Translations under genes and position numbers: made by a program
Origin: Caldilineaceae bacterium
GTDB taxonomy: Bacteria; Chloroflexota; Anaerolineae; Caldilineales; Caldilineaceae
Length of the DNA: 64,000 nucleotides
NCBI GenBank assembly: GCA_022824025.1
Contig: JAJEBF010000008.1
Coordinates: 1-64,000 of the forward strand
Direction of reading: 5' to 3'
Part shown: in pieces, positions 7,918 through 14,124 of the stretch
How positions within the stretch are numbered: the first letter of the stretch is position 1
Layout of the letters: the number at the start of each line of letters is the position of its first letter
The notes under the pieces: model-generated
Seen by the model: the letters and a program-made list of their open reading frames with translations, nothing else
Told to the model about the DNA's origin: nothing
The model's database searches: none

Positions 7918-9699
7918 CTATTCTCCTTCGAACAGCTTCTCATTGCGGTGCAGCCGGCGGGCGATGCCGAAGGTCTGGCCCTGCGCGCGCATCGTTGGCG
8001 CGTGCGCAGCCAGGTAGCGGGCCGCGGCCACCAGCACAAGCGTCGCCTCCTCCTGGGAATCCTCCTCCGCCGAAAGCAGGTCGTGTTGCCTGAAAGCCGC
8101 CTCCACACACTGAATCGTATGGAAGTTGCGATCCTCCCGCAGCAGCAGCGCGCCAAGCTCTGCCCGCAGCGCCTCCGCCCCGCCGCCTTCAAAGAGATAT
8201 TTGCCCACCGCGTTGCCGGCTTCGTTCACCTGCTGCTGCTGGTCCAGCAGATCCGCCAGCGGGGGAACCGCCGGCGCCGTGCCGTTGGAGCCATTGGCAG
8301 CCGGCAGCCTCGCCGCGGGGATGTTCAGGAATCGGTCGAGATAGATGCTCATCGCCGCGTCGAAAACACCGCGCAGCAGCAGCTGATACTCATCCGGCGA
8401 CTCGTACCCCGCCAAACGGCGCAGACCTTGATGGACCGCGTTGGCGAAAGTAAAGGTGTGCATAGCCGTATCCCAGTCGCCAAACTCGTTGCTCGTGTGG
8501 AAGCGCGCAATGCGCAGCGCCGCCGCATAGGTGACCGCGCCCGCCAACTCGACCTCGCTGGCGCCGCTCCGCAGCGCGTCCAACAGCGCCTTGGCGATGG
8601 CGTGCGGATCATCGGTCAGCAATATCTGCACCAGCTCGCCGCGTCCCGTCCAGCCACCGCGCTGCGCCTGACCCGCGGCCAGAGCAGCCGGAATCCGCTC
8701 CCGCGCATCGCCAAGCAAATCGATCAGATCGATCGGATTGCGCCACGCGTTCGACTCCTCCATCCGTTGCGCCGAAGCATAGCCGGGCACCAGGCTGGTC
8801 AAAACCCGTTCGGCCTTGTCCCAACCGACAATATCCAGCGCTTCAAACGCCTTGTTCGTAAAGTCCAGCGGATGTCCGACATCGATATAGCGGAAGTCAG
8901 TCGCCGCGCTGAACAGAATGTCGGCCATCTCCTCCGGACCGGCGCCCGCCTGCAGCGCTGTGATGATGCACCGTTCCGCGCCCTCCGCATCGCGCACCAG
9001 AATAAAGCGGCGGAACCACTGCTTCAGCGTCGGCAGGTCCGGGCTGCCGTCCGGCAGCGGCGTAACAGGAAATCGCGGCGAGCTGCCGGCCGAATCCGCC
9101 GCAACCGCAGCCAGGCCGTGCGCCAGCGCCCTCGCCCGGTCCTCGCGTCCCAGGCTGGGCAGAAGATTCTGGAAGCACGTGAGCATCGTCAGCCCCTGCC
9201 CCCAACCCGCCATGCGGTAACGAACCCCGAAATCCAGGCCCGCGGCAAAAGGCGACAGTGTGTCCCCGGCTTCGTCTACCATCGTGATCGCGGCCTTGGC
9301 CACGACCAGAGAAAGGTTGCGCTCCAGCCCGACGCCCAGCCGCTTGCGCTGGTGTTCCACCGGATCGTGCCGGGGGGTGACATCGACAAATACATCACCG
9401 TTCCGCACCTCCACCGGGAAGTTTGGCGTGTCGTCCGCCCACAGATCGAATGAACCCCCCGTGCAAAGATCAAAACGGGCGTGATGCCAGTGGCACGTCA
9501 GGATCCCATCATGCACGCTGCCCCTGTCCAGGGGAAAGCCCATATGCGGGCAGCGGTTGTCCAGCGCATAGATTTCGTCCTCATGGTGTACCAGCACGAT
9601 CACGTGCCCGTTCAGTTGGGCAGTATGCAGACCGTTTTCCTTGACTTCATCGACACTCGCAATGCGCTGGAAAGCGCCAGCAGAAACTGTAGTTGACAT
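7918..9699 (-). CDS. Rieske [2Fe-2S] protein with long helical C-terminal region
   Basis: 593 residues. The N-terminal 105 residues are a Rieske ferredoxin-type domain. Its ligands are all visible: Cys50-Pro-His52 and Cys69-His-Trp-His72, in the CxH / CxxH spacing. The remaining 480 residues are mostly helical, with many His and Trp (for example around residues 280-300) and no match I recognise. This is not the catalytic domain of ring-hydroxylating oxygenases, because the 2-His-1-carboxylate motif is not apparent. It probably transfers electrons to or from an unidentified cofactor in the C-terminal part. The gene stands alone, transcribed leftward. Confidence 0.8.
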   Translation of the reverse strand: MSTTVSAGAFQRIASVDEVKENGLHTAQLNGHVIVLVHHEDEIYALDNRCPHMGFPLDRGSVHDGILTCHWHHARFDLCTGGSFDLWADDTPNFPVEVRNGDVFVDVTPRHDPVEHQRKRLGVGLERNLSLVVAKAAITMVDEAGDTLSPFAAGLDFGVRYRMAGWGQGLTMLTCFQNLLPSLGREDRARALAHGLAAVAADSAGSSPRFPVTPLPDGSPDLPTLKQWFRRFILVRDAEGAERCIITALQAGAGPEEMADILFSAATDFRYIDVGHPLDFTNKAFEALDIVGWDKAERVLTSLVPGYASAQRMEESNAWRNPIDLIDLLGDARERIPAALAAGQAQRGGWTGRGELVQILLTDDPHAIAKALLDALRSGASEVELAGAVTYAAALRIARFHTSNEFGDWDTAMHTFTFANAVHQGLRRLAGYESPDEYQLLLRGVFDAAMSIYLDRFLNIPAARLPAANGSNGTAPAVPPLADLLDQQQQVNEAGNAVGKYLFEGGGAEALRAELGALLLREDRNFHTIQCVEAAFRQHDLLSAEEDSQEEATLVLVAAARYLAAHAPTMRAQGQTFGIARRLHRNEKLFEGE

Positions 9700-9859: not shown

Positions 9860-11137
9860 TTAGCCGCCAACCACTGCCCTCTCCCGCTCCTCCCGAACTG
9901 CAGTCAGCGCGGCAAAACCCATCAGCGCCAGCGCAGTCCAGAACAGAAAAGGCGCGCCGGCGCCCATCGATTCCAGCCCGTTGCCAATCGGCGGGGCCAC
10001 CACGGATCCAATGCGAGAGATGGCCATGATCAGGCCGGTGGCCGTCCCGGCAAGAGCCGGGCCAATCCCGCGCAGCTCGATGATCAGCGTCATCATCGTC
10101 GCCATGTAGCCGTCCCGCATGATGCCCGCAAAAATGACGGCTATCCAGATCAGGATACCTTGCACGAATGAAAGTAGCCCGAAGCCAACAATCAACATGA
10201 GTGTCGCTGTCAGCAGCAGCGGACGGCGCACACCCATCCGATCGGACAGCAGCGTAACCGGAACGGTAAAGAGCAGACTCGCGAAATGGAAGCTGGCCAG
10301 CGCGCTGTCCGCCGCGCCCGGCTCCCATCCCTGCCCCCGTAGATACAGCGGCAAGTAGCCGAGCGCCCCCTGAATTGCGCCCCCGATGCCAAACATCGCC
10401 GCCGCAAGCAGCCACACGTTGCGCAAACGGCCGACCCGCAGCAATGAATCGCGTAAAGAAGGCCGTTCCACCGGCGCCGAGGCCGGCCCGGCGCCTGCCG
10501 GTTCAGGTTTCGTCAACGCCCACAACACACTGACGATGACCGCCAGCGCCCCGTAGAAGAGCAGCACGTTGCGCCATCCGCCCAGCAGCGGCGAAAGAAA
10601 TGTCGCGCTGACCAGCGAACCGAGCAGGAAGCCTAACGCCATGCCGGCCGACACCACCCCGTTCGCCATGCCCAGATGCTTCCCCGAAAACCACACGCCG
10701 CACGTCTTGTGCACGTTCATCGGCGCAGCCATCGGGAATAGACCGGCCACCAGCACAGTGACCGTCAGGCTGGCGTAGTCGTTAGCCAGCGCACGCGTCG
10801 CACCCGTCACCCCGGTCAGGAGGCAGGCGAACACCAACATCTGCCGCGCGCCGACACGATCCCCAACCACACCCCCCATCAGGCTCATCCCGATGCCCAA
10901 CAGCGAGGATGCCCCCCACACATAACCGATCTGCACCAGGCTCAGAGAAAGATCAGTGCCGATCTCATCGAACAGGACAGGCAGCGACATCATCGGCATG
11001 CCCACCACCAACGTGTGGGTCAGCGCCGCGAGCACAAGAATGTACCACCGGTACGCGCCGCCCTCGGCAGGTGCGGTTGCCGCCGTCGCCGGCGCCGAAT
11101 CACGGCGGGGATCAGACACTGGCGGTCGTCCCGCCAT
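9860..11137 (-). CDS. Major facilitator superfamily transporter
   Basis: 425 residues with about 12 hydrophobic membrane segments and a short polar N-terminus. The conserved loop 2-3 motif appears as GGVVGDRVGARQ, and the second half has the equivalent LSDRMGVRRP. I start at ATG 11137, which overlaps the SDR stop codon by 26 bases and implies translational coupling. The open frame continues to 11437, but that extension is Arg-rich shadow of the SDR gene. A GTG at 11119 is another option. The partner SDR suggests uptake or export of a small oxidisable organic substrate; identity unknown. Confidence 0.85.
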   Translation of the reverse strand: MAGRPPVSDPRRDSAPATAATAPAEGGAYRWYILVLAALTHTLVVGMPMMSLPVLFDEIGTDLSLSLVQIGYVWGASSLLGIGMSLMGGVVGDRVGARQMLVFACLLTGVTGATRALANDYASLTVTVLVAGLFPMAAPMNVHKTCGVWFSGKHLGMANGVVSAGMALGFLLGSLVSATFLSPLLGGWRNVLLFYGALAVIVSVLWALTKPEPAGAGPASAPVERPSLRDSLLRVGRLRNVWLLAAAMFGIGGAIQGALGYLPLYLRGQGWEPGAADSALASFHFASLLFTVPVTLLSDRMGVRRPLLLTATLMLIVGFGLLSFVQGILIWIAVIFAGIMRDGYMATMMTLIIELRGIGPALAGTATGLIMAISRIGSVVAPPIGNGLESMGAGAPFLFWTALALMGFAALTAVREERERAVVGG

Positions 11138-11909
11138 CGATGAGAATCTCTGATCCCGTGATGCTGGCCGCCCGGTCCGAAACCAGAAACAGCGCCATGT
11201 CCGCGATCTCGTCCGCTTTCGCCATGCGGCCCAATGGAACCGAAGCAACGCGGCGCGCGGTTGCTTCCTCCACCGATATGCCCTGCGCCGCCGCCTCCTG
11301 GCGGGCCAGGCTGCGCGCCCGCTCCGTATCCACAGGGCCGGGCGAAATGGCGTTGATTCGCACGCCATACGGAGCAAGGTCCTGGGAAATCCCCTTGGTA
11401 AAATTGATGATGGCCGCGTTGGCTGTGCCGCCCGCAAGAAATGTCGGCGTGGGGTTGTGGGCCGCCGCGCCCACGATGTTGACGATGCGCCCCTCCCGCC
11501 GCGCCTTCATCTGCGGCGCCAGCGCCCGCACCATCCGCATATATCCGAGCAGCTTCAGGTCCCATGCGCCATGGTAGGCATCGTCGCTCAGGCTGTAAAA
11601 GTCACCGCTCGGCGCGGAGCCGGCATTGTTGATGAGGATGTCCACCTGGCTCCACGTTCTGAGAGCAAGCTCGCACGTCCTCTCAACACCTGCGGCTGTG
11701 CTGACGTCCGCGCTGACCGACATCGCTTGCGCGCCGCTCTGCTCCGTATGCGCTTCGATCGCCGTCAGCGCCCGCGCCAGCCGTTCCTCGTCGCGCGCCG
11801 CGATCAACACGCTGACGCCTTCAGCGTAGAGCGCTTGCGCGCAAGCCAGTCCGATGCCCGCGCTGCCTCCGGTGATAATGGCGGTCTTGCCCGCAAGATT
11901 GAGTTGCAA
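11112..11909 (-). CDS. SDR-family oxidoreductase lacking the canonical catalytic residues
   Basis: 265 residues with a clear Rossmann core. TGGSAGIG (13-20) binds the cofactor, NNAG is at 94-97, and SPGPVDTERA follows the active-site region. The usual Ser...Tyr-x-x-x-Lys is not there. At the expected places are Gly147, Gly160 and Asn164, in a GGTANAA segment. Some FabG-annotated SDRs share this GGxxNAA pattern, so it may be a natural divergent subfamily. The start is TTG 11909, supported by a strong GGAGAAGG six bases upstream. It is coupled to the MFS gene by overlap. Confidence 0.85.
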   Translation of the reverse strand: MQLNLAGKTAIITGGSAGIGLACAQALYAEGVSVLIAARDEERLARALTAIEAHTEQSGAQAMSVSADVSTAAGVERTCELALRTWSQVDILINNAGSAPSGDFYSLSDDAYHGAWDLKLLGYMRMVRALAPQMKARREGRIVNIVGAAAHNPTPTFLAGGTANAAIINFTKGISQDLAPYGVRINAISPGPVDTERARSLARQEAAAQGISVEEATARRVASVPLGRMAKADEIADMALFLVSDRAASITGSEILIDGGTTASV

Positions 11910-11984: not shown

Positions 11985-12989
11985 TTACCTGGCGATTTCG
12001 TCACTGTCTCCGTAAACCTCGCAACCCGGAAAAGTAAGCGAGAATCCGTACCAGCGGGCAAAGAGGTGCAGGGGCTGTTCAGTCGGCAACTCCTCCCCCG
12101 AGGGATCGTAATATCTGCCGTTGCGTACGGTCGCGCCGTCGGCCATGCGAAGGTCGCTGCCATCCCATTCGGCATCCTGCCCATCAACGAAGAGCGGCGT
12201 CGGCGTGCCGGATGCCGGGTCAAGGTAGACCAGCATGTTCCGGTTGTCGAGGACGTCGAACACCATACCGTCCCCCGCCTTGAGAATGTCGAGCGGATAG
12301 TAACGGCTTACCCTCTCCGTCCAGACGCCCAGCCCCATCTCCAAGCGCGGCCGCCGCGGGTCTTCCGCGCCCATCGAGCCCGCGAACCCCGGCGGCAAAA
12401 AGCGCCCCCTGGTCAATCGCACTAGGATCTTCATCAGGCCTACCGCCAGCCCGAAGGGCAGCGGCAGCCGCGACCGCGCGATTCGGGCGTCCGGGTACTG
12501 CGCCAAGGCCTGATCCGCACGCATATGCCGCAGCGGCTCCAATGCAAGACGGTGTCCCTTGAGCGGGCCGTACAGACATTCGCCCGTGACATGGTCCCAA
12601 TAGGAGCCGGTCTGGCGGTCCCCCATCAACGACAGGCCGTTATACAGGCCGCGCGTCGCAAAGGTGTACGTCTCCCCGTCAATGACCGGCGTCAGACCGA
12701 CGCCGCTGTTGCAAGGGGCTCAGAAAGTGGCCAGAAACGGAGTCCCGCTCCACTCGCCCTGCGCCACGTGATGGAAGATCATCTGGCTGGTAAGCAGAGC
12801 CAGCGCCGCGCCGCCCCGCTCCAGCACCAGCAGCGGCGTTTCCCTCCGCACGACACGTCCGCTCAGCGCGTCGTCCAGCCGTTCTGTGTGCTGGACGGCC
12901 AGCGGCCGGAACATATCTCGCCGGTGCAGGATTGCCCGTTTTGCGTCAAATGTCGCTGCGCCTGTCAGTTGGGTTGTGGTCGCGTCCAT
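11985..12989 (-). CDS. Predicted selenoprotein, DUF3179 family (in-frame TGA read as selenocysteine)
   Basis: I annotate one 334-residue product. Translation from ATG 12989 (AAGGG upstream) gives 89 residues ending in FLATF, then TGA at 12720-12722, then 244 residues in the same frame beginning APCNSGVGLTP. DUF3179 proteins normally have a Cys-x-x-Cys at this spot (TYCPLC-like, then N/R-SG). Here the TGA replaces the first Cys, giving Sec90-Ala-Pro-Cys93. The downstream half keeps the family landmarks GLYNG, DRQTGSYWDHVTGE and GPLKG. A stem-loop fitting a bacterial SECIS lies 14 bases after the TGA. A redox function is likely for the U-x-x-C pair, but no DUF3179 reaction is established. A premature stop or sequencing error is the alternative. 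No sel genes are in this window. Confidence 0.8.
12687..12722 (-). promoter_or_regulatory. Candidate bacterial SECIS element with its UGA codon
   Basis: On the minus strand the TGA (12722-12720) is followed by 14 bases, then CGGCGTC (12705-12699), loop GGTCT (12698-12694) and GACGCCG (12693-12687). The arms pair perfectly over 7 bp. A possible lower CAA/TTG pairing extends it across an internal loop. The loop guanines fall about 22 bases beyond the TGA, inside the window known for bacterial SECIS elements. GGUCU is also the sequence at the tip of the E. coli fdhF SECIS bound by SelB. Confidence 0.75.
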
Positions 12990-13068: not shown

Positions 13069-14124
13069 CTACGGTTCGGTCGAAAAGCGGAAAACGGTCG
13101 TCTGCGTATACTCTTCGCCGGGCCGCAGCACAATCGACGGAAAGTCCGGCTGGTTGGGCGCGTCGGGAAAGTGCTGTGTTTCAAGACAGAACCCGCCGCG
13201 GTGCGGATAGACCTGACCGCCCTTGCCCGCGTTCGCCGCTTCCATCTGGTTGCCTGTATAGAACTGCACACCCGGCTCGGTCGTCAGCACCTCCAACACC
13301 CGCCCGCTGCCCGGCTCGGACACGCGTGCCGCCAGCCGCAGCGTGCCGGGCTCTCCGTTGAGAACGAAGTTATGATCGTAGCCGCCGCCTGCTCGGATCT
13401 GCTCATCGTCGGCGTTGATGCGTGCGCCGATGGCAGTGGGCTGCCGAAAGTCGAAGGGTGTGCCGGTCACGTCCCGCACCTCACCAGTCACGATCAGCGA
13501 ACTGTCCATCGGGGTGAACGCGTCGGCATCGATCATCGCGACGTGGTCGTGGATATTGCCCTCGCCTGCCAGATTGAAGTAGCTGTGATTGGTCAGGTTG
13601 ACGATCGTCGGCGCGTCGCAGGTCGCATGGTAATCAAGACGCACCTCGTTGTCATCGTTCAGGCTGAGCCTCACCGTCGTTTCCAGCGCGCCAGGATAAT
13701 GATCTTCACCGTCCGGGCTGTCGTATGAGAGCAGCAGCCCGACCTCCCGTTCGTTCTGGAAAGGTTGCGCCTGCCATACGACCTTGTCGAAGCCGCCTTC
13801 TCCGCCGTGAAGATGGTCGTCGTTGACGTTGCGCGCAAGCTGGTAACGCACGCCGTCCAGCTCGAAGCGCCCGCCGCGTATGCGGTTTGCGCAACGGCCG
13901 ACCAGCACGCCGTAGTAAGGATGCCCGGCCAGATATTCGTCAAGCGTGTCGAAGCCCAGCACCACATCCCCCGCCTCGCCGTTGCGGTCCGGCGTCGATA
14001 GCGTACGGATCAGGCCGCCGTAGTCGAGTACGTCGATCTCTACGCCCATATTGTTGGCCAGCGAATACTGCCTGACCCCTTGCCCGCTCCTCGTTCTGCC
14101 GAATGCCTGGCTGTGCAGTTTCAT
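13069..14124 (-). CDS. galM: Aldose 1-epimerase (galactose mutarotase)
   Basis: 351 residues, the usual length for bacterial GalM. It interconverts alpha and beta anomers of aldoses in the cytoplasm. Diagnostic stretches include GRCANRIRGGRF, DDHLHGGEGGFDK with the substrate-binding His, TNHSYFNLAG with the catalytic His, and the C-terminal CLETQHFPDAPNQPDFPS with the catalytic Glu. It sits upstream of the selenoprotein gene on the same strand with an 80-base gap. Other Leloir genes are not nearby. The downstream sugar ABC transporter and Gfo/Idh enzyme fit a sugar-using organism. Confidence 0.93.
   Translation of the reverse strand: MKLHSQAFGRTRSGQGVRQYSLANNMGVEIDVLDYGGLIRTLSTPDRNGEAGDVVLGFDTLDEYLAGHPYYGVLVGRCANRIRGGRFELDGVRYQLARNVNDDHLHGGEGGFDKVVWQAQPFQNEREVGLLLSYDSPDGEDHYPGALETTVRLSLNDDNEVRLDYHATCDAPTIVNLTNHSYFNLAGEGNIHDHVAMIDADAFTPMDSSLIVTGEVRDVTGTPFDFRQPTAIGARINADDEQIRAGGGYDHNFVLNGEPGTLRLAARVSEPGSGRVLEVLTTEPGVQFYTGNQMEAANAGKGGQVYPHRGGFCLETQHFPDAPNQPDFPSIVLRPGEEYTQTTVFRFSTEP

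What the first reader, a model, noticed from the sequence alone, without database searches (positions are those of the whole stretch)
11985..12989. Probable selenoprotein: DUF3179-type gene with TGA at the first Cys of a C-x-x-C motif
The sequence shows two in-frame halves split only by TGA at 12720-12722, with no frameshift. Family knowledge: DUF3179 proteins have TYCPLC-like residues exactly here, followed by N/R-S-G. Replacing the first Cys gives U-A-P-C, a classical redox selenoprotein pattern. The upstream half (89 residues) and downstream half (244 residues) are both intact. Inference: the protein is a Sec-containing oxidoreductase. Ordinary gene finding would call two truncated proteins or a pseudogene.
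Basis: partly seen in the sequence, partly recalled or inferred. Interest (0 to 1): 0.9.

Follow-up and report, generated by a model that had tools for sequence, protein, structure and literature searches.

The report
DUF3179 selenoprotein in Caldilineaceae bacteria
This gene, which looks broken by a stop codon, very probably makes a full-length protein carrying the rare amino acid selenocysteine: the stop is kept in every relative of the genus that has the gene, a matching RNA hairpin follows it, and the genome has the whole selenocysteine machinery. The selenoprotein family itself has been on record since 2007.

Summary
On the minus strand, 12989-11985, a 334-codon frame is interrupted only by TGA at 12722-12720 (residue 90, FU-APC). 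The protein hits DUF3179 (PF11376, E 2e-22). The selenoprotein reading passes every test I could run. SelA, SelB, SelD (itself with an in-frame TGA) and tRNA-Sec, the only UGA reader among the tRNAs examined, are in the genome. All 14 genus relatives that carry the gene have TGA at this codon. Of 80 homologous loci from a genome-contig scan, 70, from about ten phyla, have TGA at this column; the rest have Cys. A hairpin 15 nt after the TGA meets the published bacterial SECIS model and covaries (99.3% of cells paired against 86.7% shuffled), including a pair of two third codon positions. It is the most synonymously constrained stretch of the gene, and that covarying pair falls to chance in Cys homologues. 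TGA is otherwise the commonest stop in the window. DUF3179 (UxxC/T) is already listed as a selenoprotein family (Zhang & Gladyshev 2007, via two reviews), so this is a new member of a known kind. Extras: breadth of the mostly-Sec clade, repeated Sec/Cys switching, a predicted Rieske-like fold without Rieske ligands. Oxidoreductase function is inferred; substrate unknown.

The parts
11985..12989 (-). Full-length DUF3179 selenoprotein gene, 334 aa with Sec90, ATG start at 12989, TAA stop at 11985-11987; AAAGGG Shine-Dalgarno-like run just upstream
12720..12722 (-). In-frame TGA read as selenocysteine (residue 90, first position of U-A-P-C)
12711..12713 (-). TGC codon of Cys93, second position of U-x-x-C; invariant in the 43-sequence alignment
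12688..12704 (-). bSECIS hairpin core: 6-bp stem GGCGUC/GACGCC, apical loop GGUCU, loop starting 21 nt after the UGA
   Evidence: lowest synonymous divergence of the gene
13069..14124 (-). Upstream neighbour, aldose 1-epimerase (galM, PF01263); conserved neighbour in the genus
11112..11909 (-). Downstream neighbour, short-chain dehydrogenase (PF13561/PF00106); conserved neighbour in the genus
9860..11245 (-). MFS transporter (PF07690), exact start uncertain; conserved neighbour in the genus
7918..9699 (-). Protein with N-terminal Rieske [2Fe-2S] domain (PF00355); conserved neighbour in the genus

Best explanation
The gene encodes a full-length DUF3179 selenoprotein of a bacterium whose closest public relatives are Caldilineaceae (Chloroflexota) MAGs. 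Ribosomes do not stop at UGA 12722-12720. SelB, carrying Sec-tRNA-Sec (made by SelA with SelD selenophosphate), binds the stem-loop that follows at 12704-12688 and inserts Sec as residue 90. Sec90 and Cys93 form a U-x-x-C redox pair that most likely cycles between selenol/thiol and selenenylsulfide in reducing an unknown substrate. Shown by sequence: the frame, the column, the hairpin, the machinery, and selection on both halves. Inferred: actual Sec insertion, the oxidoreductase activity (my confidence in that step alone about 0.6), and joint expression with galM, SDR, MFS and the Rieske protein.
For: Frame and family. Machinery: tRNA-Sec with anticodon TCA, SelA 545.6 bits, SelB 326.9 bits, SelD 325.4 bits with its own in-frame TGA in ACAGUASK; selA, selB and tRNA-Sec present in all 17 genomes of the genus examined. 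Only the tRNA-Sec reads UGA among the tRNAs examined (tRNA-Cys has GCA, tRNA-Trp CCA). Column: all 14 same-genus orthologues and G035 have TGA, G099 has Cys; 70 of 80 genome-contig loci have a TGA copy, the others TGC/TGT. SECIS: 67 sequences, 99.3% paired vs 86.7% shuffled, covariation score 0.480 vs 0.209, 0/500 shuffles, slid partners 30-55% paired; the pair between two third codon positions (21-33) pairs in 68 of 69 vs 36.4 expected, but in 5 of 13 Cys forms vs 5.5 expected. The 8-codon windows starting 2-5 codons after TGA have pS 0.064-0.161 against a mean of 0.379. Ordinary stops of long window ORFs: 16 TGA, 10 TAA, 7 TAG. Published bSECIS criteria (PMC13188914) all met.
Against: No protein or selenium data. 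Folding the single window sequence is no better than its shuffles (z -0.43), so the hairpin rests on covariation. In the wider set three TGA-bearing MAGs have no selA match, which may be incompleteness. Two genus members (G004, G010) have the machinery but no orthologue was found, so the gene is dispensable. No substrate or redox partner is known.
Confidence: 0.94

Rival explanations
1. Pseudogene or sequencing error: a TGC/TGT (Cys) codon was mutated or misread to TGA and the gene is dead or falsely interrupted.
For: One TGA in an otherwise open frame; Cys is found here in some homologues.
Against: Same TGA in all genus orthologues, in separate assemblies including two single-contig genomes; dN/dS 0.19 downstream; TGA at the same column across about ten phyla with a covarying hairpin.
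Confidence: 0.02
2. UGA is read as another amino acid (Cys or Trp by a suppressor tRNA or a changed code).
For: The homologous residue is Cys where it is not TGA.
Against: The only UGA-reading tRNA found is tRNA-Sec; tRNA-Cys has GCA and tRNA-Trp CCA. TGA is the commonest normal stop in the window and ends this same gene in relatives. The hairpin's covarying pair is kept only in TGA forms.
Confidence: 0.02
3. UGA is a regulated stop: the short 89-residue form is the main product and the hairpin is an attenuator or translational switch, with Sec insertion as a minor or selenium-dependent branch.
For: Bacterial UGA-Sec decoding competes with termination (general knowledge); some genus members lack the gene.
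Against: Both halves are under purifying selection, the first 60 codons after TGA most strongly (dN/dS 0.087); residue 90 is Sec or Cys and C93 is invariant, so the full-length protein is what selection keeps.
Confidence: 0.02

Closest known systems
DUF3179 domain-containing selenoprotein (pfam11376, motif UxxC/T), credited to the Olavius algarvensis symbiont study (Zhang & Gladyshev 2007), tabulated in PMC9312934 and PMC13188914
   Same: Same Pfam family, Sec at the first position of UxxC, bacterial UGA/SECIS decoding
   Different: Caldilineaceae host and FUAPCNSG motif; I could not obtain the tabulated reference sequence, so whether it lies in the FUxxCN clade or in the WUPLCYTG / WUHACRSG clades is not tested
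Canonical Cys DUF3179 (TFCPLCN), including a paralogue in the same genome (C23:50774-51418, L065)
   Same: Same Pfam family, C-x-x-C at the same place
   Different: Cys instead of Sec, about 30% identity, separate clade
bSECIS consensus (review model in PMC13188914)
   Same: Loop size, G in the first two loop positions (GGU), UGA-to-loop spacing and stem length all fit
   Different: Stem sequence is family-specific
Rieske [2Fe-2S] ferredoxin fold
   Same: Predicted domain superposes (Z 8.7, rmsd 2.4 over 91 residues of 2de5_D; the 50 listed entries are Rieske-domain proteins)
   Different: No CxH / CxxH cluster ligands; profile comparison not significant (probability 1-2%)

Membership tests
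Bacterial selenoprotein | In-frame TGA whose column is Cys in homologues | tested here: met
   TGA or TGC/TGT only
Bacterial selenoprotein | TGA conserved among orthologues | tested here: met
   all 14 same-genus orthologues
Bacterial selenoprotein | SelA, SelB, SelC, SelD in the genome | tested here: met
Bacterial selenoprotein | bSECIS just downstream: loop 3-9 nt, stem 4-16 bp, G in first two loop positions, 16-37 nt from UGA, MFE <= -7.5 | tested here: met
   against the criteria in PMC13188914: loop 5, stem 6-7 bp, GGU, 21 nt, -13.4 kcal/mol
Bacterial selenoprotein | Sec shown in the protein | not testable with these tools
   needs mass spectrometry or 75Se labelling
DUF3179 (PF11376) | Pfam match above the curated cut-off | tested here: met
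   80.5 bits vs 27; the best stretch covers residues 48-171 only
DUF3179 (PF11376) | CxxC (or UxxC) motif | tested here: met
Same clade as the published DUF3179 selenoprotein | Groups with the tabulated accession | not tested
   Sequence not available in the held collections; 2007 paper not held
Rieske [2Fe-2S] protein | CxH ... CxxH cluster ligands | tested here: not met
   no such motif among conserved columns
Rieske [2Fe-2S] protein | Rieske fold | tested here: inconclusive
   Z 6.7 (whole model), 8.7 (domain), predicted model only; profile test not significant

The most novel reading that the evidence does not exclude
The FUxxCN[ST]G clade of DUF3179 is a mainly selenocysteine family across about ten phyla in which Cys forms are secondary (several Sec-to-Cys switches), built on a Rieske-like fold that lacks Fe-S ligands and uses a selenol/thiol pair instead. 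It would be an uncharacterised redox enzyme class and a case of repeated Sec-to-Cys change beyond FdhA and SelD.
Probability: 0.3. Interest if true: 0.6.

Novelty: new member of a known kind. Interest (0 to 1): 0.38.

Why it matters
Routine annotation would record this gene as two fragments or a pseudogene, in this genome and in the dozens of Gemmatimonadota, Acidobacteriota and Chloroflexota MAGs found here. The covarying SECIS and the Sec/Cys column give a reliable way to re-annotate them. The family is a selenoprotein with no known substrate, and the Thermoactinomycetaceae among the hits (Marinithermofilum abyssi, Paludifilum halophilum, Melghirimyces thermohalophilus), whose records are named strains rather than MAGs, would make direct tests possible.

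Tried and rejected
(1) Single-sequence folding as SECIS evidence: z -0.43, not informative; replaced by covariation. (2) Idea that DUF3179 is a Rieske protein whose Fe-S ligands were replaced by UxxC: the fold matches, but profile comparison is not significant, and on the nearly gapless superposition (model 18-116 on chain 4-98 of 2de5_D) residue 90 falls ahead of the cluster loops (ligand positions recalled from memory), so a one-for-one replacement of the cluster is not supported. (3) Search for relatives in the PDB by sequence: none. (4) NCBIfam: no model matches. (5) Conserved genomic neighbourhood outside the genus: none found. (6) Other selenoprotein genes in the window by codon usage across TGA: none. 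(7) Correlation of Cys forms with loss of selA: not clear, 4 of 6 Cys-only genomes still have selA. (9) The 2007 primary paper is not in the library, so its content is taken from the two reviews.

Full report
What is there. The minus strand of 12989-11985 holds one reading frame of 334 residues ending in TAA, with a single internal stop, TGA, at 12722-12720. The 89 residues before and 244 after are in one frame. The read-through product matches DUF3179 (PF11376, E 2e-22, residues 48-171, across the TGA). A mechanical ORF list gives two separate pieces. Scanning every in-frame TGA of the window for coding-like codon use on both sides returned only this one.

Host. The window is contig C15 of a 5.0-Mb assembly, 99.5% complete. 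The nearest public relatives are Caldilineaceae bacterium MAGs (Chloroflexota; record titles). That these bacteria may live in sponges is only my guess from the names of the MAG series, not a tool result.

Column. Sixteen other genomes of the genus were searched. Fourteen hold the orthologue (70-99% identity; in two assemblies, G003 and G007, the match is split between frames elsewhere in the gene) and all fourteen have TGA at this codon, as does the 40%-identical G035; both copies in G099 have Cys. The remaining two, G004 and G010, gave only the distant paralogue. In a scan of genome contigs, 80 loci were returned; 70 carry at least one copy with TGA at this column and ten have only TGC or TGT. 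By record titles and NCBI ranks the TGA forms come from Chloroflexota, Gemmatimonadota, Acidobacteriota, Pseudomonadota, Thermodesulfobacteriota, Bacillota, Planctomycetota, Myxococcota, Rokuibacteriota and Calditrichota. Residues 90 (C or U) and 93 (C) are invariant in a 43-sequence alignment.

Machinery. tRNA-Sec with anticodon TCA, SelA, SelB and SelD are in the genome; SelD itself carries an in-frame TGA in ACAGUASK. All 17 genus genomes have selA, selB and tRNA-Sec, including the two without the gene. Among the tRNAs examined, the only UGA reader is tRNA-Sec. TGA ends 16 of 33 long ORFs of the window and is the final stop of this same gene in several relatives, so the code is not changed.

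SECIS. Fifteen nucleotides after the TGA comes GGCGUC-GGUCU-GACGCC (12704-12688). It meets each published criterion (loop 3-9 nt, stem 4-16 bp, G in the first two loop positions, 16-37 nt spacing, MFE at most -7.5; PMC13188914): loop 5 nt, 6-7 bp, GGU, 21 nt, -13.4 kcal/mol. Over 67 sequences 99.3% of cells are paired against 86.7% after shuffling, covariation score 0.480 against 0.209, 0 of 500 shuffles as high, and sliding the partners by one to three columns drops pairing to 30-55%. The pair at positions 21 and 33 joins two third codon positions, free of most protein constraint; it occurs as CG, GU, GC, AU, UA and UG and pairs in 68 of 69 TGA sequences (36.4 expected) but in 5 of 13 Cys sequences (5.5 expected). 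Within the genus, the lowest synonymous divergence of the whole gene lies on this stretch (pS 0.064 against a mean of 0.379). The fold of the single window sequence is not better than shuffles.

Selection. dN/dS is 0.26 before and 0.19 after the TGA, 0.087 in the first 60 codons after it. A pseudogene or truncated product would not show this.

Neighbourhood. galM, this gene, a short-chain dehydrogenase, an MFS transporter and a Rieske-domain protein lie on one strand with short gaps. The order is kept in the genus loci that reach far enough, and not outside it. Joint expression is inferred.

How it probably works. UxxC selenoproteins are commonly thiol/selenol oxidoreductases (general knowledge); Sec90 would attack the substrate and Cys93 resolve it as a selenenylsulfide. 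This is inference from the motif and its invariance; no substrate is known. AlphaFold2 gives a confident model (pLDDT 90.7; domain 93.4). Its N-terminal domain superposes on Rieske ferredoxins (Z 8.7, rmsd 2.4 over 91 residues), but Rieske ligands are absent and profile comparison finds nothing. I treat it as a lead.

Evolution. On a tree of the family the Sec and Cys forms need at least four changes, forced by well-supported branches, with Cys forms nested among Sec forms in Thermoactinomycetaceae (first tree). The direction depends on the root, but repeated Sec-to-Cys change is the simplest reading. The 2026 review calls Sec-to-Cys substitutions rare, with documented cases limited mainly to FdhA and SelD.

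Comparison with the known. Two reviews list a DUF3179 selenoprotein with motif UxxC/T, citing Zhang & Gladyshev 2007. The finding is therefore a new member of a known selenoprotein family. Within DUF3179 at least three Sec-bearing motif groups exist: FUxxCN[ST]G (this one), WUPLC[YF]TG and WUHACRSG, beside the Cys group TFCPLCN. I could not test which group holds the published example.

Verdict. Observation confirmed, interpretation supported, novelty modest.

Noticed in passing
L054, L055, L057, L058, L060, L062, L063: More distant DUF3179 homologues in genomes of the same family and class carry TGA in WUPLC[YF]TG or WUHACRSG contexts, i.e. further Sec-bearing DUF3179 clades; their SECIS was not tested.
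   Followed up: partly
L119, L132 (Thermoactinomycetaceae): Tandem DUF3179 copies, some with TGA and some with Cys at the same column, in named strains rather than MAGs: a natural Sec/Cys comparison.
   Followed up: partly
window 11988-12989 model, residues 59-161 (and 225-313): Predicted DUF3179 fold matches Rieske domains in the N-terminal part, with some weaker matches in the C-terminal part, though Rieske cluster ligands are missing.
   Followed up: partly
G000:C39:34017-35438 (L009, L010): SelA of the genus is found as two matched stretches in one 580-residue frame, suggesting an insertion near model position 247 that other genera of the family lack.
   Followed up: no
L021 1501-2496 (G000:C55:44593-45588): SelD of this genome itself has an in-frame TGA at ACAG-U-ASK, so it is probably a selenoprotein too.
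   Followed up: partly
L121, L131 (record titled Pleurocapsa minor GSE-CHR-MK-17-07R MAG): A record titled as a cyanobacterium appears to be the same as G099, which the genome search places in the same class as this Chloroflexota genome, so the public title may be a misassignment.
   Followed up: no
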